A program made the translations under genes and the position numbers. The notes below the pieces were generated by a model that worked only from the letters and a program-made list of their open reading frames with translations, had not been told where the DNA came from and ran no database searches. Shown here one piece after another: positions 16,091 through 61,251 of a stretch of DNA of 64,000 nucleotides. The stretch's first letter is position 1; the number at the start of each line of letters is the position of its first letter. Source of the stretch: Chloroflexales bacterium ZM16-3. Lineage in GTDB: Bacteria; Chloroflexota; Chloroflexia; Chloroflexales; Chloroflexaceae. The stretch is taken from the NCBI GenBank assembly GCA_004138175.2, contig RYFE02000010.1, positions 1 through 64,000 on the forward strand, written 5' to 3'.

Positions 16091-16091
16091 A

Positions 16092-27947: not shown

Positions 27948-28168
27948 TCACCACGTTTAGCGACGCCGAGCTGCGCACCCTGCCCGGCGGCACCCTGCCG
28001 GTGCTGCACCAGCGCGGCCAGGCCGAGGCCCAGCGCCGCAAGTCGGGCAGCTCCGCAGTACTGATCAGCCTTGCAATGAGCGACCAAGTCGCCCCGCCCT
28101 TCGGCGGCGCGGCGATCGTCTCGAAGTGGCAGCTCCGCGCCCTGACTGAGGCACCCACCGATGAATAA
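27926..28168 (+). CDS. Small hypothetical protein before portal
   Basis: An 80-residue protein from ATG 27926 (MPTLFTLITTFSDAEL). It overlaps both its neighbours, by 22 bases upstream and 8 bases with the portal gene, which suggests translational coupling. It has a basic middle (AEAQRRKSGSSAV) and no recognised motif. Confidence 0.55.
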   Translation: MPTLFTLITTFSDAELRTLPGGTLPVLHQRGQAEAQRRKSGSSAVLISLAMSDQVAPPFGGAAIVSKWQLRALTEAPTDE

Positions 28169-29714
28169 AGACCTCGATCGCGCCTACGCGGCGCTGCGCG
28201 CCAAGAAGCGCACGCTCGACCGCTACTTCAGCTACTACGACGGCACCGAGCAGACGCCGGTCGTCAGCGAGCGGCTGCGCGAGACCTATCAGAACATTGA
28301 CTTCTCCATCAATGAGAACTGGGCCTCGGTGGTGGTGGACAGCATGGCCGACCGCATCAACCTGGAAGGGGTGAAGGGGCCGGACGCCAAGGTGCAGGAC
28401 GCCCTCGACGAGGTGATGCGGGCCACCGGCCTGATCATCGAGGCCGACGACGCCCACGAGGCGGCCCTGATTGCCGGCGAGGCCTACCTGATGGCCTGGA
28501 AAGAGGATGACGGCGACGTGGAGTGCTACTTTCACGACCCGCGCATGTGCCACGTCTTCTACGACGAGGCCAACCCGAACAAGGCGACGTTTGCGGCCAA
28601 GTGGTGGGAGGACGAGACGCAGTGCCACATCAAGCTGTTCTACGCTGACCACATCATGCTCTTCTCGGCTAACCGCACCTCCTCCGGCGAGTTCGCCGAC
28701 AGCGATGTCTTCGCCCAGGTCAGTGACGACGAGCACCGCTACGGGGTCATCCCGGTCTTCCACCTGCGCCCGCACCGGCGCGCCGCGATCTCTGAGCTGC
28801 GCAACGTGATCCCGATCCAGGACGGCATCAACCTGATGCTGACCAATATGTTTGTGACCGGCGAGTTCTCCGCCGCCCCGATGAAGTACGTGATCTCCAA
28901 CGCCGAGGGGCTAGAGGATCTCGTCAGCGCCCCCAACCGCATCTGGACGATCCCGGCGGCGGGCGGGCTCGACGGCGGCAGCGGCGCGCAGGTCGGGCAG
29001 TTCGCTGCGGCCGACCTGGGCAACTACCTCAAGGCGGTGGAGCACTCCATCAACGCGCTGAGCAGCATCACGCGCACGCCCAAGCACTACTTCGACCTGG
29101 GGCAGAACGCCCCGTCGGGCGAGGCGCTGAAGGTGATGGAGGCCCCGCTGGTGAAGAAGGTGAAGGAGCGGATCGCCCGGTTCGAGCCGGTCTGGAAGAA
29201 GCTGTTCGTCTTCCTGTGCAAGCTCCAGGACGTGGAGGTCTCCGAGCGCGACCTGACGCTCATCTGGTCGAGCCCGGAGACCGTGCAGCCGCTCCAGGAG
29301 GCCCAGACCACGAAGGCCAAGGCCGACGCGGTGGCCGCCAAGAAGGAGATCGGCATCAGCGTGCGCCAGGCGCTGCGCGAGCTGGACTACACCGACGAGC
29401 AGATCGACACGATGGAGGCGGAGCAGGCCAGCCAGCCCGCGGCTGACGGGGCCACCGGCAACGCGCTGATGTCCGCGCTCAGCAAGGGCCCGCCTGGGAA
29501 GCCAGCCGCGCCCAAGGCGGCACCGGCCGAGCCCACGCCCGCTCAGGGCGTGCCCGCTGCGCCGCCGGTCTTACCCAAGGCGGTGGGCTCTGCGACGAGC
29601 ACCGGCCTGCCGCGCCCTGGCCCGCTGCCCACGGTGCGCCCAGTTGAGGCGAGTGGCGCGAGTTTGTCGCAAGATGGCGCAAGCGCGCCGAACACCCAGA
29701 CTGAGGTGGCGTGA
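28161..29714 (+). CDS. Phage portal protein (SPP1 gp6-like)
   Basis: A 517-residue portal protein. Portals form a dodecameric ring at one capsid vertex, through which DNA enters and leaves. The pattern fits the SPP1 Gp6-like family: YFSYYDGTEQTPVVSERLRETYQNIDFSINENWASVVVDSMADRI at the start, a DDAHEAALIAGEAYLMAW segment, HPRRAAISELRNVIPIQDGIN, and a helical end. The last ~100 residues are Pro/Ala-rich and variable. The ATG overlaps the upstream gene; the stop overlaps the MuF-like start. The large terminase gene, normally just upstream, is absent. Confidence 0.9.
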   Translation: MNKDLDRAYAALRAKKRTLDRYFSYYDGTEQTPVVSERLRETYQNIDFSINENWASVVVDSMADRINLEGVKGPDAKVQDALDEVMRATGLIIEADDAHEAALIAGEAYLMAWKEDDGDVECYFHDPRMCHVFYDEANPNKATFAAKWWEDETQCHIKLFYADHIMLFSANRTSSGEFADSDVFAQVSDDEHRYGVIPVFHLRPHRRAAISELRNVIPIQDGINLMLTNMFVTGEFSAAPMKYVISNAEGLEDLVSAPNRIWTIPAAGGLDGGSGAQVGQFAAADLGNYLKAVEHSINALSSITRTPKHYFDLGQNAPSGEALKVMEAPLVKKVKERIARFEPVWKKLFVFLCKLQDVEVSERDLTLIWSSPETVQPLQEAQTTKAKADAVAAKKEIGISVRQALRELDYTDEQIDTMEAEQASQPAADGATGNALMSALSKGPPGKPAAPKAAPAEPTPAQGVPAAPPVLPKAVGSATSTGLPRPGPLPTVRPVEASGASLSQDGASAPNTQTEVA

Positions 29715-30712
29715 TGGAGCAACACATTGAGGCCCAGCGCCTGGCCCTGGCCAGCCGCGAGGAGGCGGTGGCCCTGGAGCTGGCCCGCCAGTTCGCGGCG
29801 ATCGCCGATGCGGTCGAGGCCGAGCTCCAGACGCTCTCTGCGGCGATCGTGGCCGCCGGCGACGCGGTGAGCCCGACCTGGCTGTATCGCCAGGCGCACT
29901 ACAAGAAGTTGATGCTCGGTGCCCGCGCCGCCTACCTGGAGTACGGTCGTCAGGCCGCCCGGGCCGTCGAGGGCCAGTACGCGGTGGCGCTAGACTACGG
30001 CCTGCGCGATGCCAACGAGCTGCTGACCCTGGCCGGCCTCGCGCCGAAGCCGCTGGCCAAGCAGGCGTCGGCCGGCCTGCTGGCCGGGATGCGCCGCCGG
30101 CTGCGGAAGCTGGCCCTGCCCACGTCGCTGGTGCAGCTGGCGACGAAGGCGATCACCGGCGCGCTGGTCAAGGCGGTGAAGGTGCGCACGCCTGAGGCCC
30201 CGATCGTGCCCGCGTCGCTGATCACCAAGATCCGCGAGGGCCTGGGCGCTATACTAATCAACGTGCTGCGCGCGCACCGCACCGAGGCCACCACGGCGTA
30301 CCGCAGCGTGGTTGGCGCGCAGTTCCTGGCCACCGCCGGGGTGGTGGGCTGGCAGTGGGCGGCCGAGCTGGAGAAGTCGCCCGCGCCCTGCGCGGTGTGC
30401 GTGGCGATGCACGGCCAAGTCTTCCCAGCCGACGAGCCCTTTGGGGCGCACATCGGCTGCCGGTGCCTGGCCATCCCGGTGCTGGCGGGCGGTGGCCCGA
30501 CGATCAGTATCAGCGGGGTGGAGTGGCTGGCCGCACAGACCGAGGCCCGCCAGGTGGCCGTGCTGGGCAAGACCAAGCGGAAGCTCTACACCAATGGCGA
30601 GCTCCACCTGAGCCAACTGGTCGAGGTGTCTGAGCATCCCGTCTACGGAAAGAGCAGGCACGAGCGCTCACTGAAGGCGCTCGGGCTGGACTATCGGACG
30701 GTGACGCCATGA
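29714..30712 (+). CDS. MuF-like minor head protein
   Basis: A 332-residue protein. AHRTEATTAYRSVVGAQF near the middle and CAVCVAMHGQVFPADEPFGAHIGCRCLAIPVL are the Phage_Mu_F signature, in which conserved Cys and His residues probably hold a metal. Proteins of this type sit inside the capsid near the portal. The C-terminal ~55 residues extend past the family domain (KTKRKLYTNGELHLSQLVEVS). ATG 29714 overlaps the portal stop; a GTG at 29711 is also in frame. Confidence 0.85.
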   Translation: MEQHIEAQRLALASREEAVALELARQFAAIADAVEAELQTLSAAIVAAGDAVSPTWLYRQAHYKKLMLGARAAYLEYGRQAARAVEGQYAVALDYGLRDANELLTLAGLAPKPLAKQASAGLLAGMRRRLRKLALPTSLVQLATKAITGALVKAVKVRTPEAPIVPASLITKIREGLGAILINVLRAHRTEATTAYRSVVGAQFLATAGVVGWQWAAELEKSPAPCAVCVAMHGQVFPADEPFGAHIGCRCLAIPVLAGGGPTISISGVEWLAAQTEARQVAVLGKTKRKLYTNGELHLSQLVEVSEHPVYGKSRHERSLKALGLDYRTVTP

Positions 30713-30978
30713 GCACGTTCGTTCGCGCTGCCGACACCACCGCCACCACGACGGTGATGCACATGGCGATGGACATCCCGATGTCGCTGGTGGTCGACGC
30801 CGACTTTGGCCTGGAGGCGCTGCTGCACGTCGAGGCGGAAATCGCGGCGGCCACGTATCTTGGGCAACGGCCCGCCGCCGTGTGCTTCCGCAGCTTCGAC
30901 GCCCGCGCGGTGGCGACCGGAATGCCCGATGCGGTGGTGCATATCGAGACCGTTTGGGACATTACTCGCGCCGAGTAG
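30709..30978 (+). CDS. Small hypothetical protein after MuF-like gene
   Basis: An 89-residue protein. ATG 30709 overlaps the stop of the MuF-like gene. The sequence (MDIPMSLVVDADFGLEALLHVEAEIAAATYLG) is weakly similar to the 85-residue protein before the portal and shares the VWDIT ending. It is the last head gene before the inserted cargo genes; no family name can be given. Confidence 0.6.
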   Translation: MSTFVRAADTTATTTVMHMAMDIPMSLVVDADFGLEALLHVEAEIAAATYLGQRPAAVCFRSFDARAVATGMPDAVVHIETVWDITRAE

Positions 30979-31025
30979 GTGCGATCATTGCATTCCCGCA
31001 ACAGGCACCCACGCTGCCCTCCCAC

Positions 31026-31072
31026 ACAATAAGCCACCTCCCGTGTATAATACACAGGAGGTGGCTTATTGT
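31026..31072 (+). promoter_or_regulatory. 47-bp palindrome carrying a -10 box
   Basis: Arms ACAATAAGCCACCTCC (31026-31041) and its exact complement (31057-31072) enclose GTGTATAATACAC, itself a palindrome centred on the adenine at 31049. Only one position pair of the whole 47 bp (31042/31056) mismatches. TATAAT lies in the centre at 31046-31051. A dimeric repressor bound here would cover the promoter of the ATPase-nuclease gene, which begins 12 bases later. Confidence 0.75.
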
Positions 31073-31084
31073 ATGGGAGGCCGT

Positions 31085-32512
31085 ATGTTTGTCGATCGCG
31101 TGCAGGAGCTGGCGTTCCTCAACCGGGTGCTGACGCGGCGCCGACCCGGCCCGGCCCAGCTGCTGCTACTCTATGGCCGCCGCCGCGTCGGCAAGACCAA
31201 CCTGCTCATCCATTGGGCCGAGCGCAGCGGCCTCCCGATCACCTTCTGGACCGCCGAGAAGGAGCCGGCCGCCCTCCAGCGGCGCAAGTTCTACGCGGCT
31301 CTGGTCAATATGCCCATCGCCCGCGCGCCGCTGTTTGAGAGCTGGGCCGAGGTCTGGGATGCGGCGGCCGATGTGATCGTCGGTACGCGTCGCATTCTCG
31401 TCCTCGATGAGCTGCCCTATGCCATCGAGTCCGACCCCGCTGCCCTCTCGGCCCTGCAGCACGCCTGGGATCATCGCTTCCAGCATATGGAGACCGTGAT
31501 CGCGCTGTGCGGCTCGCAAATCCGGGTGATGGAAGGCATCCAGGGTGCGCAGTCGCCGCTCTTCGGCCGGCTGACCGGGCGCTGGCACCTCCAGCCGCTG
31601 CCCTTCTCCGCCCTGCGGGAGTTCTTCCCGGCATGGTCCGTCGAGGAGCGCATTGCGGCCTACGCCGTGGTCGGCGGTATCCCCGCCTATCTGGGCTGGC
31701 TCGACTCGGAGCTGAGCCTGGTCGAGAACATCCGCCAGGTCATCCTCGACCCCGGCAGCATGTTTGGCGCCGAGCCGACCTTTCTGCTCTACGATGAGCT
31801 GCGCGATCCGCAGCCGCACCTGGCCATCCTCAAGGCGATCGGTGCCGGCGCGCACACCCTCGACGAGATCAAGAACGCCGCGCTGATCGACAAGGCGCAT
31901 CTCTCGTCCTACCTGGTGCGGCTCCAGGATCTGAAGCTGGTCGAGCGGCGGCTGCCGGCGACCGTGCCCCAGGCCGCGCAGCGCACCTCGCGCAAGGGGC
32001 GCTACCACCTACGCGACGCCTACTTCCGGTTCTACTTCCGCTTCCTGGCCCCCCACCACGACCGGCTGGCCTTCGCGCCACAGGAAGCGCTCCTGTTGAT
32101 CCAGGCGAACCTGCGGGCCTTCGTAGGCCAGACGGGGTTTGAGGAGCTGTGCCGCCAGTGGGTGACCGAGCAGGCCCAGGCAGGAGCCCTGCCATTCATC
32201 CCGACGGTGGTGGGCAGCCACTGGAGCCGCAGCGTCCAGGTGGATGTGGTGGCGATCAACTGGCAGGATCACGCCATCCTGCTGGGCGAGTGCAAATGGG
32301 GTGCCGACGAGGTAGACCGACAGGTGGTACGCGAGCTGATCGAGCAGAAAGCCCCGAAGCTGCTGGCGGATCTGCCCGACCACGGGCAGGGCTGGACGAC
32401 CCACTACGCGCTCTTCGCCCGGCGCGGCTTCACCACCGAGGCGCGGAGCGAGGCTACCCGCTACGGGGCCATCCTGGTTGATGCGGCGCAACTGGATGCG
32501 GAGTTAGGCTGA
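31085..32512 (+). CDS. AAA ATPase with PD-(D/E)XK nuclease domain (ATPase/DUF234 type)
   Basis: A 475-residue protein; start chosen at 31085 behind GGGAGG. Walker A GRRRVGKT (31-38) and Walker B RRILVLDELPY (101-111) define the archaeal-type ATPase. A winged-helix part follows (about 245-300). The C-terminal DUF234-like domain has QVDVVAINWQDHAILLGECKW with Asp386, Glu401 and Lys403, the PD-(D/E)XK nuclease signature. Such proteins are common in archaea and Chloroflexota and have been linked to mobile elements or defence. It lies inside the head operon with its own palindromic promoter, so it is most likely acquired cargo. Confidence 0.8.
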   Translation: MFVDRVQELAFLNRVLTRRRPGPAQLLLLYGRRRVGKTNLLIHWAERSGLPITFWTAEKEPAALQRRKFYAALVNMPIARAPLFESWAEVWDAAADVIVGTRRILVLDELPYAIESDPAALSALQHAWDHRFQHMETVIALCGSQIRVMEGIQGAQSPLFGRLTGRWHLQPLPFSALREFFPAWSVEERIAAYAVVGGIPAYLGWLDSELSLVENIRQVILDPGSMFGAEPTFLLYDELRDPQPHLAILKAIGAGAHTLDEIKNAALIDKAHLSSYLVRLQDLKLVERRLPATVPQAAQRTSRKGRYHLRDAYFRFYFRFLAPHHDRLAFAPQEALLLIQANLRAFVGQTGFEELCRQWVTEQAQAGALPFIPTVVGSHWSRSVQVDVVAINWQDHAILLGECKWGADEVDRQVVRELIEQKAPKLLADLPDHGQGWTTHYALFARRGFTTEARSEATRYGAILVDAAQLDAELG

Positions 32513-32716
32513 ACCGCACTACGATGTCAGGTGGCGATGGATTCGTCGATCTGCGCTTTGAGGGCGCGGAGTTGGGCCGCGAGGGCAAGGTAGGGTGAGC
32601 CCTCGGCCTCCGCCATCCTCGGCCCAGTGCACCTGGTGCTCCAGCTCAGTGGTCAGCGCGCTACGCTGATCGGGATCGCCAGTGGCGAGCATCTGCATAA
32701 CCGCTGCGCGCTTGCT

Positions 32717-35700
32717 TCACGCTACAGGTGGGCGATACACTTTGCGCGCCTCCTGCGGCGCGCCCAGCGCAGCGAGGTTGCGCTGGACCGTCTGGGTTAA
32801 TGGATGCTGCGTCCCGAGGCGGGCGGTGAAGATGGCGAGGGCGCGCTCGTAGTAGGGGCGGGCCGCCGCATAGTCGTGCTGGGCTTGCAGCAGGGAGCCC
32901 AGGTTGTTGAGGCTACGGGCGGTGTCAGGGTGGTCGGCCCCGAGCACGCGCTCGTTGATGGCGAGGGCGCGCTCGTAGTAGGGGCGGGCCGCCGCATAGT
33001 CGCCCTGGGAATCCAGCAGGGCGCCCAGGTTGTTGAGGCTCAGGGCGGTGTCGGGGTGGTCGGCCCCGAGCACGCGCTCTCGGATGGCGAGGGCGCGCTC
33101 GTAGTAGGGGCGGGCCGCCGGATAGTCGCCCTGGGCGTGCAGCAGTCCGCCCAGATTGTTGAGGCTACGGGCGGTGTCGGGGTGGTCGGCCCCGAGCACG
33201 CGCTCTCGGATGGCGAGGGCGCGCTCGTAGTAGGGGCGGGCCGCCGCATAGTCGCCCTGGGCGTGCAGCAGGTAGCCCAGGTTGTTGAGGCTCAGGGCGG
33301 TGGCGGGGTGGTCGGTCCCGAGCACGCGCTCTCGGATGGCGAGGGCGCGCTCGTAGTAGGGGCGGGCCGCCGCATAGTCGCGCTGGGCGTGCAGCAGGTA
33401 GCCCAGGTTGTTGAGGCTCAGGGCGGTGTCGGGGTGGTCGGCCCCGAGCACGCGCTCGCGGATGGCGAGGGCGCGCTCGTAGTAGGGGCGGGCCGCCGCA
33501 TAGTCGCCCTGGGCTTGCAGCAGGTAGCCTAACTCGTTGAGTAACGACGCAGCCGATGGTTCCTCCCTACTGTCTTTCGCTACGTGCTGTACGTGAAGCA
33601 GATATGGTTGACTAGCGAGTGGGTAGCCAGCTTTGTTGATTGGGACAAGCAATGCAAATAAGACCGTCGCGAGTGTGTGTTGGATCGTCGTTGATACCTG
33701 CACCTGATCGCGCACAAACGCCGCCACCAGCCGGTGCAAGATCGCCCCGCCCGCGGGAAGCAGCTCAATCAGCCCCACGCTCACCAGTCGGCGCAGTGGT
33801 GCATCCACCTCGATGGCCTGGCTCTCGTCATCGGGGTCACGGTCGATGAGCCGTACGAGCAGCGGCTGGGGGATGGGTGCGGGAGCCAGGAACGCGGTGT
33901 GGTGGAGCAGGGTCAGGCTCAGGACGTCAGCCGGCTTCGTCGCGTCAAGCTGCTGATAGCTCAGGGCGATCGTCGCAGCGACGCTTTCCGCGTGATTGGT
34001 GGGCAGCCCCTCATCCAGCTCGGCATCGAGCGAGGGGTGCTGGAGCAAGGTTTCCGTGAGCCGAGCGCGGTAGCCGGCCAGCGAGAGGCTGGGGGTCTGC
34101 TCCAGGTAGGCCCCAGCCAGGGCCAGAGCCAGTGGCAGATCGCCGACTTCCTCACAGATCGCGTCGGCCTCGGTCGCGACAGCCGGCTCGGCGAGCACCG
34201 TCTCAAGCTGGGCACCGTAGCGAGGAGTGAGCATCAGGCGCACGCTCTCCGGGCGGACGAGTGTGGGGAGGCGTATTGCCTGCACGCCGCTGGTGGCGCT
34301 CCAGACACCGCGCCGGGTGGTGAGCAGCACCCGCGCCCCACCGCCGATCGGTCGCCAGTTCTGGAGCAGCTTCGGGTCTTCCAGGTTGTCGAACACCAGC
34401 AGGCGGCGGGTCGGCTCGGCCCAGGCTCGCCGCACCGCTGCGATCTTCCCCTCGAAGTCGAGCCCTGCCCAGCCCGGCAGATCCAGCCTGCCTGGCCCGC
34501 CGGCAGCGGCCACCTGCGTAGCGACTGCATCTTCCTCCGCCATACTCAGCCAAAACACCCCGCCGGGAAACTGGTCTCGGTGGCGGTGGGCAAACTCGCT
34601 AGCCAGCTGGGTCTTGCCGATGCCTCCGGTGCCGGCGATGGCCGGGAGCACCGCCGCGGTGCCGTTCCCTTCGCCTAAGAGCACTGCAGCTAGCGCATCC
34701 ATCTCAGCGTCGCGTCCACGAAAGAGCGGGTTGGGCGGGTAGGGCACCTGGAACACCCCGGCGCCGCGCACCGTCTCGGTGGGAGATCGCCAGAGCGCCC
34801 CGTCTTTCACCGCCATCCACAGCACCGGCATCCACCAGGGGCCACTGGCGGGCAGGGCGGAGCGGGCGGCGGCAAGGGCGCGATCAATCTGCCCGTCGCG
34901 GCGTAGCTCGGTGAATAGGCGCGGGGTCAGTGTGGCGACCAACTCCATCGGCACGTTGCCCTGCATCGCGATCACCGCGCCCACGCCGGCCTGGGCCAGC
35001 CGCGGTCCAACGGCGGCGAGCAACTGGTAGGTGTCGCCGGCACCCTGGCAGGAGGCCAGCACCACCAGCAGCGGGCGGCGGGTTAGCTGCGTGATCATCT
35101 GCACCAAAGCCGTGCCATCGACAGGCTGATAGCGCCCATTGCCCTCCTGCTCCAGGTAGAGGTATGACTGATCGCCATTTAGTTTGCCGTGGCAGGTGAG
35201 GTAGAGGATCTGCGCGCCGTCGCGCAGGGCGGCGGCGATATTTGCCAGGCTCGCGGCGGGTCGTCCGTCCGTGCCGTCGAGGATGGTTGTGGGGATGTCG
35301 CCCAGGCCCACCTGTGCCCACGCCACTTCGCCTGGCACATCCACCGGGGCCATCCGCAATGTTGGCAGCGTCGCCGGGTTGGCGACGGCGACCACGGCGC
35401 GCAGGGCGGGCTTCGCTGGTGCCTGCACATCGGCGAGGCTGGGCGTGGCCAGATAGCGCGAGAATGGGGTGCGCTCGGTGTAGGCCAGGGGCGCGCCATC
35501 GATCGGGTCGCGCAGCAGCTCCCAGCGGATGGCGTGCAGCCCGTCGTCACCATTGAGCACCAGGCGCACGCGCATCGCGTTTGCGCCCTCGGCGTAGCCC
35601 CGCGCCCGCTGCCAGCCCTCACGTAGCGCGGGCGTGAAGAGCATCGCGGTGAGCATGGCTCCATAGGAGTCTGGATCGTCCGCGTACTCTAGCAATACCG

Positions 35701-35830
35701 TGGGCTTGAGTTTGATTGCCTCTGGGGGCACCAAATCGGCGCGGCGGTTGGGCAGCTCGACCCGCAGCGCAGCGCTCGTCATCCCATCGGCGGCACGGGC
35801 GATGATCAGCTCAAGGTCAGTGGTTGGCAT
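32717..35830 (-). CDS. CHAT protease-NB-ARC-TPR protein (NLR-like)
   Basis: A 1037-residue protein. An N-terminal CHAT caspase-like protease has the catalytic His214 in LTCHGK and Cys261 in VLASCQG. An NB-ARC ATPase follows: Walker A GTGGIGKT (400-407), Walker B LLVFD (477-481), GARVLLTTRRG and GDLPLALALAG (563-573). Six 42-residue TPR units close the protein (about 763-1010). This is the layout of STAND/NLR-type sensors, in which the repeats recognise a ligand and the ATPase oligomerises to activate the protease. It is encoded against the structural operon. A defence or programmed-death role is inferred. Confidence 0.85.
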   Translation of the reverse strand: MPTTDLELIIARAADGMTSAALRVELPNRRADLVPPEAIKLKPTVLLEYADDPDSYGAMLTAMLFTPALREGWQRARGYAEGANAMRVRLVLNGDDGLHAIRWELLRDPIDGAPLAYTERTPFSRYLATPSLADVQAPAKPALRAVVAVANPATLPTLRMAPVDVPGEVAWAQVGLGDIPTTILDGTDGRPAASLANIAAALRDGAQILYLTCHGKLNGDQSYLYLEQEGNGRYQPVDGTALVQMITQLTRRPLLVVLASCQGAGDTYQLLAAVGPRLAQAGVGAVIAMQGNVPMELVATLTPRLFTELRRDGQIDRALAAARSALPASGPWWMPVLWMAVKDGALWRSPTETVRGAGVFQVPYPPNPLFRGRDAEMDALAAVLLGEGNGTAAVLPAIAGTGGIGKTQLASEFAHRHRDQFPGGVFWLSMAEEDAVATQVAAAGGPGRLDLPGWAGLDFEGKIAAVRRAWAEPTRRLLVFDNLEDPKLLQNWRPIGGGARVLLTTRRGVWSATSGVQAIRLPTLVRPESVRLMLTPRYGAQLETVLAEPAVATEADAICEEVGDLPLALALAGAYLEQTPSLSLAGYRARLTETLLQHPSLDAELDEGLPTNHAESVAATIALSYQQLDATKPADVLSLTLLHHTAFLAPAPIPQPLLVRLIDRDPDDESQAIEVDAPLRRLVSVGLIELLPAGGAILHRLVAAFVRDQVQVSTTIQHTLATVLFALLVPINKAGYPLASQPYLLHVQHVAKDSREEPSAASLLNELGYLLQAQGDYAAARPYYERALAIRERVLGADHPDTALSLNNLGYLLHAQRDYAAARPYYERALAIRERVLGTDHPATALSLNNLGYLLHAQGDYAAARPYYERALAIRERVLGADHPDTARSLNNLGGLLHAQGDYPAARPYYERALAIRERVLGADHPDTALSLNNLGALLDSQGDYAAARPYYERALAINERVLGADHPDTARSLNNLGSLLQAQHDYAAARPYYERALAIFTARLGTQHPLTQTVQRNLAALGAPQEARKVYRPPVA
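32800..33544 (-). repeat. Six 126-bp TPR-encoding repeats
   Basis: The six repeat units are nearly identical at the DNA level as well as in protein. Each encodes the core YAAARPYYERALAIRERVLG with few silent changes. Such identity suggests recent amplification or gene conversion, and copy number may vary between strains. Confidence 0.9.
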
Positions 35831-35946
35831 AGTGTTGTGGTGCTGAATGCGGATCGGCTGACACTACTATAGCAGCCGTGGCGGCGGCGTGCAATATGGC
35901 ATAGCTCGCTCGGGATCATCCAATAATTGCATCTGTTACAGCAGCG

Positions 35947-36011
35947 TGCTATAGTCAGGCAAGCAGCGAAACACGCGCATTTCCTCCAAAACGGAGGAGG
36001 TGCGCTTTTTT
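35947..36011 (+). promoter_or_regulatory. Leader module 6, ahead of the scaffold/capsid genes
   Basis: TGCTATAGT (35947-35955), seven bases, core AGCAGCGAAACACGCGC (35962-35978), a hairpin with TCCTCC/GGAGGA arms (35975-36005) and T6 (36006-36011). A weak TTGCAT lies 17 bases upstream of the -10. The preceding gene is on the other strand, so this is a true leader. It restores transcription of the structural genes after the cargo insertion. Confidence 0.75.
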
Positions 36012-36036: not shown

Positions 36037-37053
36037 ATGACCACACCTGTCAGCCCAACCGCACCTGTCGAGCTGGACACGACCGAGCAGGACGATATCG
36101 CGCAGGCCGAGCCGGAGGTCGCGCCCGAGGCCGAGCCGGAGGTCGCACCCGAGGCTCCGGCCGAGCCCGAGGCCGAGTTTGAGGAAGTCGATGTGCCGCC
36201 GCCCGCTGCGCCTGCCGCACCTGTCGCGCCCGCCCCGAACGCGGTGGCCGACGCGCTGCGCGCCGCCCGCGCCGTCGAGGCCGCTGCGCGCACCGGCGCA
36301 TCAGCCGCTACCGCCACGCGTGCCGCCGCTGCCCCTGCACCGGCCAGCGCCGCGCCAGCCCCGGCTGCGCCCCCGGCTCCACCTGCGCCAGCCGCGTCGG
36401 CGCCTCGCCCGGCTCCGCGCCCAATCGCGCCGCCTGCCTCGCCGCCCGCGCCCGTCGCAACCGCCGTCCCGGCGGCCGTCGCAGCGCCCGCCCCGGCTGC
36501 GCCTGAGCCTGAGCCGATCACGGCCGACGCGGTGCCTGCGCCCGCCATCCCCGCAACCTTTGACTCCCTGATGACCACGCTGGACGCCTACGCGCGCGAC
36601 CTGGTCGAGCGGCATATCACCGGCCTCAAGGCGGCCCTCGTCACCGAGCGCGACGGCACCAAGCGGCTGGAGAAGCAGCTGCGCACCGTCACCACGGCGG
36701 CTGAGGAGGCCGGCCCGCTGCGCGCCCAGCTCGCGGTGGCCCAGACCGATGCCGAGACCGCCGCCGCCCGCGCCGACTTCTATGAGGCGTCGGTCGCCGA
36801 GGGCGTGAAGCGGGGCAACGCCCGCCTGGTCTACCTCGCGGCCACGGACGGCGGGCACATCGCCGCCGATGGCAGCGTGGCGTGGGCCGACCTACGCGAA
36901 ACATTCTCCGACCTGTTCGAGCCAACAAACCCCATCGCCCCCATCCGGCCCACGCCACGCGCGTCCGTAGGGGCAGGGCTGACCCAGCCCGTGACCGGGG
37001 GTGCCCGCGGCTTGAATCAGATCCTTCGGGACGCGGCGGGGCGCCGCCCCTGA
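36037..37053 (+). CDS. Capsid scaffolding-like protein
   Basis: A 338-residue protein. Residues 1-170 are Pro/Ala/Glu-rich and probably disordered. Residues about 185-255 form a helical, charged segment (RDGTKRLEKQLRTVTTAAEEAG) likely to be a coiled coil. The C-terminal part, ARADFYEASVAEGVKRGNARLVYLAATDGGHIAADGSVAWADLRETF, resembles the phage scaffold end that contacts the capsid protein. The position directly before the major capsid gene supports this. No protease motif is seen. Confidence 0.7.
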   Translation: MTTPVSPTAPVELDTTEQDDIAQAEPEVAPEAEPEVAPEAPAEPEAEFEEVDVPPPAAPAAPVAPAPNAVADALRAARAVEAAARTGASAATATRAAAAPAPASAAPAPAAPPAPPAPAASAPRPAPRPIAPPASPPAPVATAVPAAVAAPAPAAPEPEPITADAVPAPAIPATFDSLMTTLDAYARDLVERHITGLKAALVTERDGTKRLEKQLRTVTTAAEEAGPLRAQLAVAQTDAETAAARADFYEASVAEGVKRGNARLVYLAATDGGHIAADGSVAWADLRETFSDLFEPTNPIAPIRPTPRASVGAGLTQPVTGGARGLNQILRDAAGRRP

Positions 37054-37219: not shown

Positions 37220-37314
37220 ACCCGGCCCGAACAACCTGCAAAAGGCGAGATGCCTTCGCACCTGGCGAGATGCCAACCACCCTGTTTCTCTCTTTGCGAA
37301 GGAGCTCGCCCACC

Positions 37315-38271
37315 ATGGCCTACGATTCTGTCATCGACCGCAACGACACCCAAGCCCTGATGCCCGAGGATGTCGCCCGCGACATTTTGCAGGGCGTCGC
37401 CAAGGCCTCGTTCATCCTCTCCCTGGCCACCCGCCTCCCCGACATGCCCCGCAAGACCCGCCGCATGCCAGTTTTATCGGTGTTGCCGACTGCCTACTTC
37501 GTTAATGGCGATACGGGCATCAAGCAGACGACCGAGATGAGCTGGGCCAACAAGTACATCACCGCCGAGGAGATCGCCGTCATCGTGCCGGTGCCCAACA
37601 TCGTGCTCGACGACGCGGCCTACGACATCTGGGGCGAGGTGCGCCCGCACATCGAGACGGCCTTCGGCCAGCTTCTTGACCGCACCGTGTTCTACGGCGG
37701 CATGGGCGGCTACACCAAGCCCTCCGCGGACTGGCCGGACGGTATCGTCACCCAGGCCGTGACCGGCGGCCTCGTCGCCAGCCTGTCGGGCCAGGGCGAC
37801 CTCTACGACGCCATCCTCGGCGAGACCGGCACCTTCCACTTCGTGGAGGAGGGCGGCTTCACCGTCAACGGCAACGTGGCCAGCCCCACGATGAAGGCCA
37901 AGCTGCGCGGCGCCCGCGATGCCGATGGCCAGCCCATCTTCTCGCGCACGGCCGGCGGCCAGTTCGACCTCGACGGCTCGGCCCTGACCTTCCCCGAGAA
38001 CGGCGCGATCGACCCCGCCATGAGCCTGCTGGTCAGCGGCGACTTCCGCCAGCTGGTCTACGCGGTGCGCCAGGACATCACCTACTCCATCGCCACCTCG
38101 GGCGTGATCACCGACAACAGCAACAACATCGTCTACAACCTGTTCCAGCAGGACATGACGGCCATGAAGGTCGTGATGCGCCTCGGCTGGCAGCTGCCGA
38201 ACCCGCCGAGCTGGCTGAAGCCCTCGTACTCCGACGCGACCCGCTTCCCCTTCGCCGTGCTCCAGCCGTAG
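37315..38271 (+). CDS. Major capsid protein (HK97-like)
   Basis: A 318-residue protein from ATG 37315, with GAAGGAG ahead. It follows a scaffold-like gene and shows the pattern of HK97-fold capsid proteins encoded by siphophages of this kind: DVARDILQGVAKASFILSLATRLPDMPRKTRRMPVLS near the start, NIVLDDAAYDIWGEVRPHIETAFGQLLDRTVFYG in the spine-helix region, and MSLLVSGDFRQLVYAVRQDITYSIATSGVI near the end. No N-terminal delta domain, in line with a separate scaffold. Confidence 0.85.
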   Translation: MAYDSVIDRNDTQALMPEDVARDILQGVAKASFILSLATRLPDMPRKTRRMPVLSVLPTAYFVNGDTGIKQTTEMSWANKYITAEEIAVIVPVPNIVLDDAAYDIWGEVRPHIETAFGQLLDRTVFYGGMGGYTKPSADWPDGIVTQAVTGGLVASLSGQGDLYDAILGETGTFHFVEEGGFTVNGNVASPTMKAKLRGARDADGQPIFSRTAGGQFDLDGSALTFPENGAIDPAMSLLVSGDFRQLVYAVRQDITYSIATSGVITDNSNNIVYNLFQQDMTAMKVVMRLGWQLPNPPSWLKPSYSDATRFPFAVLQP

Positions 38272-43630: not shown

Positions 43631-46600
43631 ATGAGTCTCAGCCTTGGCGATATCCTGCTCCACTTCCGTGCGAAATCCACGGAGGTGGACTCGGCGTTCA
43701 CGCGAATCGACCGCCAGGCGCTGGACTTCGCCCGCCGCAACCAGGACCGGCTGATGTCGCGTTTCACCGGCGACACCTCCGGTATTGATCAGGCGGCATC
43801 GCGCTCCGAGGGCATGCTTCAGAGCTGGTCAGGGCGGGTCAAGGGCTACATCGCGCAATCGCTGACGATGCCCGTGGGCAACCTGATCGCCGGCGCGGCG
43901 AGCAACGTGCTGGGCGCGATCAAGGGCTCCGTGATTGGGATGAACGCCCAGCTCGAGGACTCGACCCTCCAGTTCACCACGCTGATGGGCGACGCCGACC
44001 TGGCCCGCGAGCACGTCCTGAGCCTGTTCAAATTTGCCAAAGATACGCCGTTCGAGACCGGCCCGATCCTCCAGGCCAGCCGCCTGCTCCAGACGTTCGG
44101 CGGCAACGCCTTGAACTCGAATGCAGAGCTGCTGCGCCTCGGCGACGCGGCGGCCGTGGCCGGCAAGGACATCAGCCAGGTCGGCTTCTGGTACGGCCGG
44201 CTCTACAGCTCGATTAAGAACAAGCAGCCCTTCGGCGAGGCCGCGATGGCCATGCAGGAGATGGGCGTGATGTCGGGCGAGACCCGCATCAGGCTGGAGG
44301 CGATGCAGAAGTCCGGCGTGGATGGGGCGACGGTCTGGGCGGCCTTCGGGGCCGAGATGGACAAGAACGCCGGCGCGATGCTGCGCATGGCCACCACCTG
44401 GACGGGCCTGACCTCGACGCTGGCGGACACGATCAACATCGGCGGCGCGAAGGTCTTCGCCCCGTTCTTCCAGATGGCCAAAGAGGCCGTGATGCTGGTC
44501 GTCAACATCCTCTCGACGCCACGCTTTGACTCCTTCCTCAACAAGGGAGCCGAGGTGATGCAGGGGGTGGCCAACGCCATCCGCGGCGCGGCCGAGTCGG
44601 TGCTGCCCATCGTGGGCATCGTCTGGGGCGTGATAGAGCCGCTGCTGGCCGTGGCCGTGGACTGGGGCGCGGGCTTCGTGAAGGCGTTCGCCGACGGCAT
44701 CACCCTGGCGACCGGGCTGGCTGGCGACGCCCTGGGCGGCATGGCCGACCTGATCACCGGGCTGCTCGAGCCGCACTCCCCGCCGAAGATCCTGCCGAAC
44801 TTGGACAAATGGGGCACTAAGGCGGCCCAGGTCTGGATGAACGCCTGGGGACAGGCCGACTACAGCGTGTTCTCCCAGATCGGCGCTGCGGTCAAGAGCG
44901 CGCTCGATCTCGCGGTGGGCAAGGGTGCGCTCAGCGAGGCCCAGCTTATCCCGACGCTTTCTGCGACGAAGGCGGCGCTGGCCGAGCTGATCACTGGCTA
45001 CGAGCAGACTGGCGAGGTGAGCGAGGCCAGCCTGGCCAAGATGACCAAGGCCGCCGGCCCGGCCGGCCAGGCGGTGGCCGAGATCGCCGTGGCCTACCTG
45101 CAGGTCGAGGCGGCCAACCGGGCCGTGGAGCGCTCGCAGCTTGACCTCAACGAGGCCACCAAGCGCTACGACGCGGTGCTGGCCCCGCTGAACGCGCAGA
45201 TGGCTGCGCTCGACCGGCAGGCCTCCGCGATCAACGATACCAAGAAGCTGGCCCAGCTCCAGGCGGATATGCGGAATGCGACCGGGAGCGACCGCGAGCT
45301 GCTGATCATCGAGATGAAGCAGATCAGCCTGCGCAAGCAGATCGCCACCCAGACCCAGGCCCGCGACACCGCCGTGAAGGCCGCACAGAGCAAAATCGAC
45401 GCCGCCCAGCAGGAGGCTGCCGCCGCCAAGACCAGCCTCGCCGTGATGCAGGCGAAGCAGAAGGTCGAGGAGGAAGGCCTGGCCATGGCCAAGCAGCAGG
45501 TCACCCTGCTCACCTCGCTGGCCAAGGGCGCGGCGGCTCAGGCGAAGTCGACCGACGCGGTGAAGAAGAGCATCGACGACGCCAATAGCTCGGCGGCGAA
45601 GATGACCGAGCGGGTGAATGGCCTGATCGGGACGATGGGGAAGATGCGCGAGAAGGGCTCGGCCGCGGTCAAGCCGCTCACCGATGCGCTCACGGTGATG
45701 CGCAAAACGTGGGACAACACCGTGAGCGCGTTCAAGTCCAATGGGGTGACCGGCGCGCTGGTGAGCCTCGTATCGGCGGCCGGCGGGGTCAAGCTGCTGC
45801 TCACCCCGATGGGCAAGCAGGTTATCGGGGTCACCAACACGCTCAATCGCTTCGGCGAGGGCCTGGTCGCGCTCCCGAAGATACTCCGGAACGCGTTCAG
45901 CGGCTTCCAGTCGAACGGGATCACCGGCGCGGTCGCCAGCCTCGCCGGGGCCACCGGCAACATCAAATTTCTCTTCACCCCGCTGGGCAAGGAGATCCTG
46001 GCCTTTACCACGGCGCTGCCTGGGCGGATCGCGGCGATCTCAACGACCCTCGGCGGGATGGCGCAGCGCCTGGCCGCCCTCGCCGCGACGAAGATCGGCA
46101 CCAACATCCAGAACGGGATGGCGGTGGCCGCGACCGCTGTGGAGCGCCTGTCCCGCGCCGCCGGCATGCTGGGCGTGGCCTGGGCCGCAGCCAAGCAGCG
46201 GTTCGCCGAGGGCGGCAACGTCTTCAGCGCCGGCAATGTCCTCGCCGCCATCCAGGCGTTCTTCGGCGAGCTGGCTGGCACCCTGCTGGCCTCCGGCAAG
46301 GGGATGGCGCGGAACTGGGTCACGGGGCTGACCGCCGCCCTGCCCGAGGGGCTGCGTGCGAAGCTGCCGCTCATCGCGGGGATGATTGCCAGCGTCCTCG
46401 GCGCGCTCACGCTTGGCCCGGGCATCGCCAGTATGTTCGCCGCCCTGGCACCGGTCGGGGCGCTCCTGGCCCCGCTGGGGCTGGCCCTCGGCCCTGTCCT
46501 CGGCCTGTTCGGCAAGCTCGGCCCGCTCCTCCGCAGCTTCCTGCCGGTGCTGGGCCGCCTCGGCCCCACGTTCATGACCCTGCTCAACCCGCTGAACCTG

Positions 46601-48235
46601 CTCAAGGGCGGGCTCGGCAGCATCTTCACCACGCTCGGGGTGACCGGGCTGAAGATGATCGCCATCGTGAAGAACCCGATCGCCTCGCTCTCGGGGCTGT
46701 TCCGCGGCATCGGCCCGGCGCTGCTGGGCCTGAAGAACCCCATCGGCATGCTGCTGAACGTCGGCAAGCTGGTGATGGGGCTGTTCTCACCGCTGGGCAT
46801 CGTGATTGGGCTGGTGGCCCTATTCGCCGGCGCGTTCGCTACGAACTTCGGCGGCATCCAGGGCATCGTCGCGGAGACCTTGGCCCCGCTCATGCCCGTG
46901 CTCGGCGAGCTGGGCCGCATCCTCAAAGACGTGGTGCTCGCCGCCCTCCAGGGCGACTGGTCGGGGGCCCTCATCATCCTGACCGGTGGCTTCGCCCTGC
47001 TCGGCCCGATGCTCGGCCAGGTGGCGGCATCCTTCCAGACCGGCATCCCGGCCATCTTCGGGGTGCTGATGCAGTTCCTCGGCCAGATCGGCACGACCGT
47101 GATCGGGGCCATCGGGGCCTACTTGCCCGGCATCCTCACGGCCCTGGCCGGGATGGCGGCGGCGTTCCTCGGCTGGGTCGCGCCGATGATCCCGCCGATG
47201 CTCATCGCCATCGGCGGGATGCTGGGCCAGCTGCTCGACGCGATCGGGGCCGCGCTGCCCGGTATCATCGAGACCCTCGCCACCATCGCGGCACAGTTCC
47301 TGGCCTGGATCGGGCCGATGGTGCCGCCGATGCTGCTGGGCCTGATGCTGCTGTTCACCAGCCTGATCGGCTGGATCGCGGAGCGGGCGCCGGGGGTGCT
47401 GGCCAAGCTCGGGGAGTGGGGGCTGAACCTGGTGGCCTGGATCGCGCCGATGATCGCGCCGATGCTCGTGGCAGCTGGCGGCATCCTCGCGGCCATCCTG
47501 GGCTGGATCATCGAGAAGGCCCCGGACATCCTGGCCAAGCTCGGCGAGTGGGGCACGCAGTTTGCCACATGGGCACGCGACGTGGCCGGCCCGGCGCTCA
47601 AGACGGCGCTGGGCACGATGTTCAGCGGGCTGTGGACGGAGCTGCAGAAGCTCTGGGGCGCGGCCTTCGCGGACGGCTCGCTTGGGGCCTCGCTGCTGGC
47701 CGGCATGAAGCAGGGCATTATCGACGGCTGGGGGGCCTTCTCCGGCTGGTTCGTCGCCAAGCTCAAGACGATGATCCCCGACTGGGCCAAGGGGCCGCTC
47801 GGCATGAACGCGCCCACCGCCCCGCCCCCGCCCGGCCTGGCCACCGGCGGCGACGTGACCAAGGGCCAGCGCTACATCGTCGGCGAGCAGGGGCCGGAGT
47901 TCTTCGTGGCCCCGGCCGACGGCATCATCGAGCCCCACTCGGTCTACCAGGCGGTGACCGACCCGCTCGCCAGTGTGAGCAGCGCGATCTCGGCTGGCAA
48001 ACGCCCCGCCCCGCGCGCGCCCTGGGCGGCCGCAGCCCTGGCCGCCGCAGGCGGTGGTGGCGGCGCTGCGCCTAGCGGCTCCGCATCGCTGGGGCCGCTG
48101 ACCGTGGGCATCACCATCAATAACCCGGTGGTGGATAGCGACGCGCGCCTGGAGCAGTTCAAGCGCGAGGTGCTCGCCGAGGCGACGGCGCAGTTCACCG
48201 CCGCCGTGAACCGGCTTACCCTGAGCGGAGTATAG
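43631..48235 (+). CDS. Tape measure protein
   Basis: A 1534-residue protein that sets tail length and is ejected on infection. It has a tape-measure N-terminal domain (TRIDRQALDFARRNQDRLMSRFTGD, later GLFKFAKDTPFETGPILQASRLLQTFGGNAL), a long coiled-coil region (about 480-670), many hydrophobic stretches in 880-1300 (for example LFGKLGPLLRSFLPVLGRLGPTF), and an end with VGEQGPEFFVAPADG, the usual C-terminal signature. At about 0.15 nm per residue it predicts a tail of roughly 230 nm. It follows the chaperone pair, as is usual. Confidence 0.95.
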   Translation: MSLSLGDILLHFRAKSTEVDSAFTRIDRQALDFARRNQDRLMSRFTGDTSGIDQAASRSEGMLQSWSGRVKGYIAQSLTMPVGNLIAGAASNVLGAIKGSVIGMNAQLEDSTLQFTTLMGDADLAREHVLSLFKFAKDTPFETGPILQASRLLQTFGGNALNSNAELLRLGDAAAVAGKDISQVGFWYGRLYSSIKNKQPFGEAAMAMQEMGVMSGETRIRLEAMQKSGVDGATVWAAFGAEMDKNAGAMLRMATTWTGLTSTLADTINIGGAKVFAPFFQMAKEAVMLVVNILSTPRFDSFLNKGAEVMQGVANAIRGAAESVLPIVGIVWGVIEPLLAVAVDWGAGFVKAFADGITLATGLAGDALGGMADLITGLLEPHSPPKILPNLDKWGTKAAQVWMNAWGQADYSVFSQIGAAVKSALDLAVGKGALSEAQLIPTLSATKAALAELITGYEQTGEVSEASLAKMTKAAGPAGQAVAEIAVAYLQVEAANRAVERSQLDLNEATKRYDAVLAPLNAQMAALDRQASAINDTKKLAQLQADMRNATGSDRELLIIEMKQISLRKQIATQTQARDTAVKAAQSKIDAAQQEAAAAKTSLAVMQAKQKVEEEGLAMAKQQVTLLTSLAKGAAAQAKSTDAVKKSIDDANSSAAKMTERVNGLIGTMGKMREKGSAAVKPLTDALTVMRKTWDNTVSAFKSNGVTGALVSLVSAAGGVKLLLTPMGKQVIGVTNTLNRFGEGLVALPKILRNAFSGFQSNGITGAVASLAGATGNIKFLFTPLGKEILAFTTALPGRIAAISTTLGGMAQRLAALAATKIGTNIQNGMAVAATAVERLSRAAGMLGVAWAAAKQRFAEGGNVFSAGNVLAAIQAFFGELAGTLLASGKGMARNWVTGLTAALPEGLRAKLPLIAGMIASVLGALTLGPGIASMFAALAPVGALLAPLGLALGPVLGLFGKLGPLLRSFLPVLGRLGPTFMTLLNPLNLLKGGLGSIFTTLGVTGLKMIAIVKNPIASLSGLFRGIGPALLGLKNPIGMLLNVGKLVMGLFSPLGIVIGLVALFAGAFATNFGGIQGIVAETLAPLMPVLGELGRILKDVVLAALQGDWSGALIILTGGFALLGPMLGQVAASFQTGIPAIFGVLMQFLGQIGTTVIGAIGAYLPGILTALAGMAAAFLGWVAPMIPPMLIAIGGMLGQLLDAIGAALPGIIETLATIAAQFLAWIGPMVPPMLLGLMLLFTSLIGWIAERAPGVLAKLGEWGLNLVAWIAPMIAPMLVAAGGILAAILGWIIEKAPDILAKLGEWGTQFATWARDVAGPALKTALGTMFSGLWTELQKLWGAAFADGSLGASLLAGMKQGIIDGWGAFSGWFVAKLKTMIPDWAKGPLGMNAPTAPPPPGLATGGDVTKGQRYIVGEQGPEFFVAPADGIIEPHSVYQAVTDPLASVSSAISAGKRPAPRAPWAAAALAAAGGGGGAAPSGSASLGPLTVGITINNPVVDSDARLEQFKREVLAEATAQFTAAVNRLTLSGV

Positions 48236-48237
48236 GC

Positions 48238-48621
48238 ATGAGCGACTTCTACACCTTCAACGGCATCCCATTCGTGATGGTCGTGCCCGGCTCGGGCGAG
48301 ACGCCGCACTGGGCGGTGGCCCTGGACGCCACCGACCGCAAGCTGATCGGCACCGACCGCTTCGAGCGCACCATCCGCTCACGCCAGTACCGGCTGGAGG
48401 GCGAGCTGTGGGTGGAGCCCAACGCGGTCCTGGCCACCGCCGAGGGCTCCTGGCGCGCGCTCCAGGACGCCTACGTCGGGGCCACGCTGGCCGCGCTGGT
48501 CTCGCCGGCCGGCACCACGAAGTCCTGCATCATCGTGGCCTTTGACGTGGTGCCGCTGCGCGGCGGCGTCGATGGCTATCGCGGCAAGGTCGTCTTCGGC
48601 CTGCCAGGCGGGATGGCATGA
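48238..48621 (+). CDS. Putative distal tail protein
   Basis: A 127-residue protein between the tape measure and the large hub gene, the place of the distal tail protein or a small baseplate adaptor. FYTFNGIPFVMVVPGSGETPHWAVALDATDRKLIGTDRFERTIRSRQYRLEGELWV is beta-rich. The next gene starts inside its stop codon. The assignment rests mainly on position. Confidence 0.6.
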   Translation: MSDFYTFNGIPFVMVVPGSGETPHWAVALDATDRKLIGTDRFERTIRSRQYRLEGELWVEPNAVLATAEGSWRALQDAYVGATLAALVSPAGTTKSCIIVAFDVVPLRGGVDGYRGKVVFGLPGGMA

Positions 48622-59875: not shown

Positions 59876-60110
59876 ACCGCCGTGGTGGGTGCGGCGTCCC
59901 AAGCTCGGCCCGGGCGATCGCCGCCAGGCGGGTCTTGCCGAAGCTGCCGAGGAGCGATTGACGCGCCTTTTCGATCTGATCGACCCAGCCAGCGACATCG
60001 CCGTCGGCCGCGCGCCGGCGGTTCAGCACCTCGGTGGCGAGCCCCGCCGCCTCGGGATCCATCGCGGCGATCGCGGCGAGGAGTTCTTCGGGCGTGCGTG
60101 GTATGCTCAC
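59874..60110 (-). CDS. Probable ParR-like partner of the actin-like ATPase
   Basis: A 78-residue protein whose ATG overlaps the stop of the ParM-like gene. It is small, basic and helical (MSIPRTPEELLAAIAAMDPEAAGLATEVLNRRRAADGDV...SLLGSFGKTRLAAIARAELG). Being second in a two-gene unit with an actin-like gene and next to palindromic repeats, it matches the ParR place. No ribbon-helix-helix motif can be pointed out with certainty, so the name rests on context. Confidence 0.55.
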   Translation of the reverse strand: MSIPRTPEELLAAIAAMDPEAAGLATEVLNRRRAADGDVAGWVDQIEKARQSLLGSFGKTRLAAIARAELGTPHPPRR

Positions 60111-61228: not shown

Positions 61229-61251
61229 CACAGGCTCCTTCAGCTGCGCGG

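What the first reader, a model, noticed from the sequence alone, without database searches (positions are those of the whole stretch)
31026..35830. Defence-like cargo inserted in the head operon
Between the MuF-like and scaffold genes lie an ATPase-PD-(D/E)XK nuclease protein and a CHAT-NB-ARC-TPR protein on opposite strands, each with its own control, while leader module 6 restarts the structural genes behind them. CHAT proteases coupled to STAND ATPases are known in bacterial immune proteins. This is a plausible new cargo hot spot for prophage-encoded anti-phage defence.
Basis: partly seen in the sequence, partly recalled or inferred. Interest (0 to 1): 0.82.

Follow-up and report, generated by a model that had tools for sequence, protein, structure and literature searches.

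The report
Self-regulated defence genes inside phage head operon
A virus-like element in a filamentous photosynthetic bacterium carries two extra genes that look like immune proteins, inserted between its capsid genes, and one of them belongs to a widespread but untested family of defence genes that, as found here, often sits behind a long palindrome in its promoter, probably its own on/off switch.

Summary
A STAND-ATPase/PD-(D/E)XK nuclease gene (31085-32512, +) and a CHAT-NB-ARC-TPR gene (32717-35830, -) lie between the MuF-like and scaffold genes of a Chloroflexales prophage-like element. They are a ~5 kb insertion: the closest relative (Oscillochloris sp. ZM17-4) has the same head genes with only ~52 bp where the cargo would be, and all relatives with a measurable portal-to-capsid interval lack it. 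The insertion stops just upstream of the promoter-like leader of the scaffold gene. A general hot spot is not proven: one relative (a MAG contig) has a CRISPR array and an antisense ORF at the same point, another has three small ORFs, others have nothing. Defence function is predicted only: the nuclease is PADLOC's untested candidate PDC-S27, and the CHAT protein is NLR-like with its catalytic motifs intact. The unexpected result is a 63-bp palindrome with a TATAATA centre before the nuclease gene. Such palindromes precede this family far more often than control genes, keep symmetry while the sequence changes on both arms, and were almost only found at these genes. I read it as a gene-specific autoregulatory operator. 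In one genome, palindrome plus ORF is exactly the unit shared by two loci.

The parts
28161..29714 (+). SPP1-type portal protein, upstream flank
   Evidence: PF05133 E 4.7e-35, phrog_104 E 9e-83
29711..30712 (+). MuF-like minor head protein
   Evidence: Phage_Mu_F E 1.7e-4, below the Pfam cut-off; phrog_241 E 4e-9
30709..30978 (+). small head-operon ORF, last gene before the insertion; orthologue in L028 8458-8721
   Evidence: 47% aa identity to L028; alignment
31018..31080 (.). 63-bp near-perfect palindrome (31-bp arms, 94% complementary) centred on TATAATA; proposed autoregulatory operator/promoter of the ATPase gene
31085..32512 (+). STAND/AAA+ ATPase + winged helix + C-terminal PD-(D/E)XK nuclease (ATPase_2-DUF234; PADLOC PDC-S27)
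32540..32716 (-). possible frameshifted remnant of a small ORF downstream of the CHAT gene
   Evidence: two overlapping frames read MQMLATGDPDQRSALTTELEHQVHWAED and AEGSPYLALAAQLRALKAQIDESIAT; no homologue tested
32717..35830 (-). CHAT protease - NB-ARC - 6 x TPR protein; CHAT His/Cys motifs (LTCHG, LASCQ), NB-ARC motifs, six 42-aa TPR units, the first five 87-98% identical in DNA
35866..35894 (-). promoter-like TTGCAC-17-TATAGT for the CHAT gene
   Evidence: read directly from the sequence; not listed by the stricter scan
35927..35955 (+). promoter-like TTGCAT-17-TATAGT in front of the scaffold-like gene; right edge of the insertion lies just upstream
   Evidence: -10 region conserved in L028 which lacks the cargo
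35975..36005 (+). terminator-like hairpin followed by T-run in the leader of the scaffold-like gene
   Evidence: 13 pairs; hairpins at the same place in L028 and L029
36037..37053 (+). scaffold-like gene (by position), downstream flank
   Evidence: 54% aa identity to L028; no family match
37270..38271 (+). HK97-type major capsid protein
   Evidence: PF05065 E 6e-26; 90% identical in L028

Best explanation
A ~5 kb cargo of two host-derived, separately transcribed immune-type genes was inserted into the head operon of this Chloroflexales phage, immediately upstream of the pre-existing promoter and leader of the scaffold gene, so that late genes stay expressed. Gene 1 is a PDC-S27 protein: a STAND/AAA+ ATPase with winged helix and a PD-(D/E)XK nuclease. 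Inferred mechanism: in the resting state the protein binds the palindrome that overlaps its own promoter and represses itself; on infection or DNA damage ATP-driven oligomerisation releases it from the operator and activates DNA cleavage. Gene 2 is an NLR-like protein: TPRs sense, NB-ARC oligomerises, and the CHAT protease cleaves cell proteins, causing growth arrest or death that protects the lysogen's kin from superinfection. Shown: insertion, domain make-up, intact motifs, palindrome conservation with symmetric change. Inferred: operator binding, nuclease activity, defence, trigger.
For: Empty site in L028. Portal-capsid distance (7.6 kb in the window) is 0.5-3.4 kb in relatives. PADLOC PDC-S27 E 2.7e-39, and all 16 aligned homologues match it. 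The model (pLDDT 89.6) has residues 1-320 matching archaeal STAND ATPases 2qen (Z 20.5) and 2fna (Z 19.6), then plant NLR NB-ARC and ORC/Cdc6 rows. The nuclease domain (pLDDT 87) matches 1y88 (Z 13.0), a Pyrococcus repair endonuclease and EndoMS (Z 10-11), MspJI, Can2 and Cdn1 (Z about 10), with E353, D387, E402, K404 present. Palindrome: 292/340 Watson-Crick pairs in 17 Chloroflexales homologues against mean 177, max 227 when arms are re-dealt; 28 of 52 family members at p<=0.01 against 8 of 197 control genes by the same method with 100 shuffles; arm pattern found in 5 of 61 genomes, at these genes in four of them. Hence a gene-specific binder, most simply the gene's own product. Closest relatives are in the host genome, not in viruses: nuclease 93% at C115, CHAT 67% at C48; no close viral relative.
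Against: No experiment. PDC-S27 is not described as validated in the literature read. The palindrome is not universal in DUF234 genes (for example L101, L104, L112, L115 without one). No phage-resistance or binding data. The site is shared with different cargo in at most two relatives. The element's ability to form particles was not tested. CHAT-NB-ARC-TPR genes are numerous in this host (21 matches of some part) and may serve regulation or cell death unrelated to phage.
Confidence: 0.58

Rival explanations
1. Selfish or hitch-hiking unit. The palindrome plus nuclease ORF is a compact mobile gene whose nuclease acts in its own spread, for example by cutting at palindromes or cruciforms; the phage is only a vehicle and no host benefit exists.
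For: In this genome the C2 and C115 copies share only palindrome+ORF: 19/100 identity just upstream, 52/60 in palindrome and leader, 89% in the ORF, 23/80 after the stop. Chloroflexales copies inspected sit among unrelated neighbours. The C-terminal domain is a PD-(D/E)XK nuclease. The G002 copy has a second palindrome right after the stop.
Against: No empty site with clean ends or target duplication was found for the unit alone; no stand-alone palindromes at clear sites in 61 genomes by the arm pattern used, apart from one unexamined match; strong purifying selection, 103 synonymous against 34 non-synonymous codon differences, fits a protein with a function but does not exclude a selfish one.
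Confidence: 0.15
2. The CHAT-NB-ARC-TPR protein and the ATPase serve the phage in lysogeny control, timing of host death or conflict between co-resident prophages, not in immunity of the host.
For: The CARD-NLR-like LypABC of Caulobacter is co-opted for lysis by a gene transfer agent (PMC13236601, abstract read). The genes lie in a late operon.
Against: Both genes have their own promoter-like signals and the CHAT gene is antisense to the late genes, so late expression is not implied; the relatives lack them and keep their head genes.
Confidence: 0.15
3. Decaying prophage: the two genes are random insertions into a dead element.
For: A possible frameshifted small ORF remnant lies between the two genes; the relative L028 has a split MuF gene and lacks several kb of tail genes present in the window.
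Against: In the window, portal, MuF, scaffold-like, capsid, tape-measure and tail ORFs are open, and the capsid is 90% identical to the relative.
Confidence: 0.12

Closest known systems
PDC-S27 (PADLOC candidate defence family; ATPase_2 PF01637 + DUF234 PF03008)
   Same: Profile match over almost the whole protein, same domain order, single gene, ATPase fused to PD-(D/E)XK
   Different: A long covarying palindrome on the promoter; no report of it was found in the held library. Placement inside a phage head operon.
Archaeal STAND ATPases SSO1545 (2fna) and PABY2304 (2qen)
   Same: Fold of residues 1-320 (Z 19.6-20.5, rmsd 3.2-3.3 A, 285-292 residues)
   Different: These chains are 350-352 residues and align only to residues 1-320, so they lack the C-terminal nuclease domain
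EndoMS/NucS-like repair nucleases, MspJI, Can2/Card1/Cdn1
   Same: PD-(D/E)XK fold of the C-terminal domain (Z about 8-11)
   Different: Sequence identity 10-18%; substrate unknown here; to my knowledge those proteins lack the STAND ATPase
Bacterial NLR-like STAND proteins with protease effectors, and TPR-CHAT (Csx29) of Craspase
   Same: CHAT protease coupled to a TPR sensor; NB-ARC in NLR fashion; near-identical repeat units
   Different: CHAT, NB-ARC and TPR in one chain, no CRISPR partner; best NCBIfam name is the FxSxx-COOH system TPR protein (311.9 bits, cut-off 300), whose best stretch starts at residue 366 and so leaves out the CHAT part
Prophage-borne defence genes (for example inhibition of virion assembly, PMC10884400, title and abstract only)
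   Same: Accessory immune-type gene carried by a prophage
   Different: That system acts on virion assembly; the present genes have nuclease and protease domains

Membership tests
PDC-S27 candidate defence family | Full-length match to PADLOC profiles PDLC04984/PDLC04985 | tested here: met
   E 2.7e-39 and 1.2e-27, residues 2-409 and 2-470; 16 of 16 aligned homologues match
PDC-S27 candidate defence family | STAND/AAA+ ATPase module with Walker A and B | tested here: met
   YGRRRVGK invariant in 16 homologues, DE of the Walker B (D108 E109) invariant; fold match 2qen/2fna
PDC-S27 candidate defence family | PD-(D/E)XK nuclease with catalytic residues | tested here: met
   E353, D387, E402-C-K404 present; fold matches to PD-(D/E)XK enzymes
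PDC-S27 candidate defence family | Anti-phage activity | not testable with these tools
   no experiment; [quoted passage not shown]
Bacterial NLR-like (effector-STAND-repeat) protein | N-terminal effector, central STAND ATPase, C-terminal repeats in one chain | tested here: met
   CHAT 57-327, NB-ARC 375-579, TPR from about 750
Bacterial NLR-like (effector-STAND-repeat) protein | Intact catalytic motifs of the protease | tested here: met
   LTCHG (His) and LASCQ (Cys)
Bacterial NLR-like (effector-STAND-repeat) protein | Recognition of a phage protein and effector activation | not testable with these tools
   needs an experiment
Cargo hot spot (variable accessory genes between conserved phage genes) | Cargo absent from relatives with the same flanks | tested here: met
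   L028 empty site
Cargo hot spot (variable accessory genes between conserved phage genes) | Different cargo at the same place in several relatives | tested here: inconclusive
   L029 CRISPR array plus antisense ORF before the same leader; L010 three small ORFs; L028 and L179 none
Autoregulatory palindromic operator | Symmetric dyad over the promoter, conserved as symmetry across the family | tested here: met
   met for a majority of members, not all
Autoregulatory palindromic operator | Bound by the gene's own product | not testable with these tools
   inferred from restriction of the arm pattern to these genes

The most novel reading that the evidence does not exclude
The PDC-S27 protein is a DNA-palindrome-sensing immune nuclease. 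The palindrome in its own promoter is both its repressor site and the template of what it recognises (a palindromic or cruciform DNA structure), and palindrome+ORF moves between genomes as an autonomous one-gene element that phages can pick up.
Probability: 0.12. Interest if true: 0.82.

Novelty: new variant of a known kind. Interest (0 to 1): 0.56.

Why it matters
PDC-S27 was counted in about 8,000 copies in one survey (3,503 in Archaea, 4,562 in Bacteria; PMC12988326) and has no known mechanism that I could find. A palindrome at its promoter in both domains gives a directly testable DNA ligand, explains how a potentially toxic nuclease could be kept off, and offers a sequence handle for finding start sites and new members. 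The head-operon insertion shows that late structural operons, just upstream of an internal promoter, can accept immune cargo without disrupting the flanking structural genes.

Tried and rejected
Stand-alone or dispersed copies of the palindrome (a REP- or MITE-like origin): not found with the arm pattern in 61 genomes; matches lie at these genes plus one at G040:C63 that was not examined. RNA hairpin as the selected structure: only 12 of 48 mismatches are G-T type and the TATAAT sits in the centre, so DNA-level symmetry fits better. Clean empty site for the nuclease unit in sister genomes: C115 flanks are repeats, and G008/G030 against G023 gave no site. Exact target-site duplication at the 5-kb insertion: relatives are too diverged (72-77% DNA) and only an unconvincing ATTGCAT shared by both sides was seen. 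Close viral relatives of either cargo protein: none; a portal query also found none in viral contigs. CRISPR spacers of L029 against the window and fetched loci: nothing beyond one 14-nt match. Papers linking DUF234 or COG1672 with a palindrome: none relevant. Stricter promoter scan did not list the promoter-like sites I read by eye.
Full report
WHAT IS THERE. The window is contig C2 of a 6.3-Mb genome. The nearest named genome with the same capsid gene is Oscillochloris sp. ZM17-4, 90% identical in the major capsid protein, so the host is most likely a filamentous phototroph of the Chloroflexales. A head operon runs portal (28161-29714), MuF-like (29711-30712), small ORF (30709-30978), [cargo], scaffold-like (36037-37053), HK97 capsid (37270-38271), followed by tail genes. 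The cargo is two genes pointing at each other: an ATPase_2-DUF234 protein (31085-32512, +) and a CHAT-NB-ARC-TPR protein (32717-35830, -).

IT IS AN INSERTION. L028 (ZM17-4) aligns to the window on both sides: window 30764-30914 to L028 8513-8663, then window 35920 onward to L028 8715 onward. Only about 52 bp of L028 lie where the window has 5 kb. The left edge falls after the stop of the small ORF, between about 30984 and 31017; the right edge lies just before 35927, where a promoter-like TTGCAT-17-TATAGT and a terminator-like hairpin (35975-36005) precede the scaffold-like gene; the -10 region and hairpin are also in L028. Portal-to-capsid distance is 7.6 kb in the window and 0.5-3.4 kb in the relatives where it can be measured. 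No exact target duplication could be shown, because the relatives are too diverged.

IS IT A HOT SPOT? Among close relatives, L028 has only small ORFs before the leader and L179 has no room for cargo of this size. L010 has three small ORFs without Pfam matches. L029, a 5.9-kb contig of Ca. Viridilinea halotolerans, has a similar hairpin leader in front of its scaffold-like gene, but upstream of it an antisense 116-aa ORF and a ten-repeat CRISPR array (repeat about 37 nt, spacers 34-38 nt) whose main repeat variant occurs nowhere else in that genome. Two different immune-type cargos at one point is suggestive, but L029 is a short MAG contig without portal or MuF, so the hot-spot claim stays open.

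THE NUCLEASE PROTEIN. It matches PADLOC's PDC-S27 at E 2.7e-39. AlphaFold2 on ten sequences gave pLDDT 89.6; residues 1-320 are an archaeal-type STAND ATPase with winged helix (2qen Z 20.5, 2fna Z 19.6), followed in rank by plant NLR NB-ARC modules and ORC/Cdc6. The C-terminal 163 residues folded alone (pLDDT 87.2) match PD-(D/E)XK enzymes: 1y88 (Z 13.0), a Pyrococcus repair endonuclease (Z 11.0), EndoMS (Z 10.0), MspJI, Can2 and Cdn1 (Z about 10). E353, D387, E402 and K404 are present; two of 16 homologues have T for the lysine. A 2026 survey reports PDC-S27 as an ATPase fused to PD-(D/E)XK, abundant in Archaea, with validation pending for most PDCs (PMC12988326).

THE CHAT PROTEIN. CHAT (57-327) has His and Cys motifs LTCHG and LASCQ; the NB-ARC region has LLVFDN, TTRRG, LPLAL and HRLV. 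Six 42-aa TPR units follow; five are 87-98% identical to each other in DNA and differ at few residues, as expected for recently amplified sensor repeats. The nearest protein in the own genome is 67% identical (C48), among 21 partial matches, so the family is a host one. A viral-contig search with this protein found nothing.

THE PALINDROME. Right before the ATPase gene lies a 63-bp near-perfect palindrome (31018-31080; 31-bp arms, 94% complementary, 1 nt between them) with TATAATA at its centre, 36 nt before the start codon. In the own genome a second copy of the gene (C115, 93% aa) has its own palindrome. The two loci share nothing else: 19/100 matches just upstream, 52/60 in palindrome and leader, 89% in the ORF, 23/80 after the stop. 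Homologues in other Chloroflexales nearly all have such a palindrome with different arms and a preserved centre, 34-44 nt before the start. Over 17 homologues, 292 of 340 mirrored positions are Watson-Crick; re-dealing arms among sequences gives 177 on average and at most 227; sliding by 1-3 gives 64-112 of 306 against 264. The centre was chosen per sequence for best symmetry, which favours the observed over the slid values; the re-dealt control and the control genes (16 of 18 members but 2 of 178 controls reach 15 of 20) do not share that weakness fully. Two of these 17 (L052, L063) appear to have lost the original element to other local repeats. Mismatches are not enriched for G-T, which argues for DNA rather than RNA. 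Pairing is strongest at positions 1-5 and 12-20 from the centre and weakest at 6-11, as if two outer half-sites and the -10 core matter. These points are inference from one alignment.

HOW WIDE IS IT? With one procedure (best dyad within -90..+12, block shuffles), 28 of 52 DUF234-ATPase genes reach p<=0.01: 13/17 Chloroflexales, 8/17 other Chloroflexota, 5/12 on plasmids of other phyla and haloarchaea, 2/6 in viral contigs. Control genes from the same loci give 8 of 197 (100 shuffles each), and five viral PDC-S01-like outgroup genes give none. In the haloarchaea Halomarina and Halarchaeum, and in Mesorhizobium, the dyad overlaps the start codon. The feature is therefore common but not universal. 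The arm pattern ATAAGCCAC-N-GTGGCTTAT was found in 5 of 61 genomes; in four of them the place is such a gene.

MECHANISM. Because each palindrome has its own sequence, is confined to its gene, and covers the promoter or start, the simplest reading is a self-specific operator: the protein (winged helix or nuclease domain) binds and represses its own gene, and release on activation raises its level. This is inferred, not shown. Activation by ATP-driven oligomerisation and DNA cleavage follows from the STAND and PD-(D/E)XK families. The CHAT protein would act as an NLR-like sensor-protease. Defence of the lysogen is the most likely purpose, untested.

VERDICT. Observation confirmed; interpretation partly supported. 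The cargo is a new case of a known kind (prophage-borne candidate immune genes). The symmetric palindromic promoter of PDC-S27 genes was not found described in the papers searched, and makes an uncharacterised, very widespread family directly testable.

Noticed in passing
L029:1-1080: CRISPR array of ten repeats in two repeat variants (CCTAGTGAGG / CCTGGCGAGG), plus a lone repeat copy at 1058-1080, about 0.9-1.3 kb upstream of a phage scaffold-like gene in a Ca. Viridilinea halotolerans contig; the main repeat variant occurs nowhere else in that genome.
   Followed up: partly
window 44418-50484: Tape-measure and tail region (ORFs of 1534 and 1108 aa) has no DNA match in L028, where the flanking matches are only about 600 bp apart; the tail region is deleted or replaced in ZM17-4.
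   Followed up: no
L028 8028-8041: The MuF-like gene of ZM17-4 is split into two overlapping ORFs (273 and 65 aa), suggesting a frameshift.
   Followed up: no
L076 7505-7546 (G002:C115:22505-22545): A second palindrome of the same arm family (ATAAGCCAC...GTGGCTTAT) lies directly after the stop codon of the ATPase gene in a sister genome.
   Followed up: partly
window 32540-32716, - strand: Remnant-like small ORF in two frames downstream of the CHAT gene.
   Followed up: partly
window 12530-13987 and 14696-16129, - strand: Two proteins, each with a ParB N-terminal domain and a methyltransferase domain.
   Followed up: no
window 60107-61255 and 61870-63186, - strand: Weak MreB/ParM-like protein match and a DnaB helicase at the right end of the window.
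   Followed up: no
window 12415, 14640, 18387, 19041, 24300: A 54-140 bp element of L028 (12953-13092) matches five places in the left half of the window in inverted orientation: a dispersed repeat of the element.
   Followed up: no
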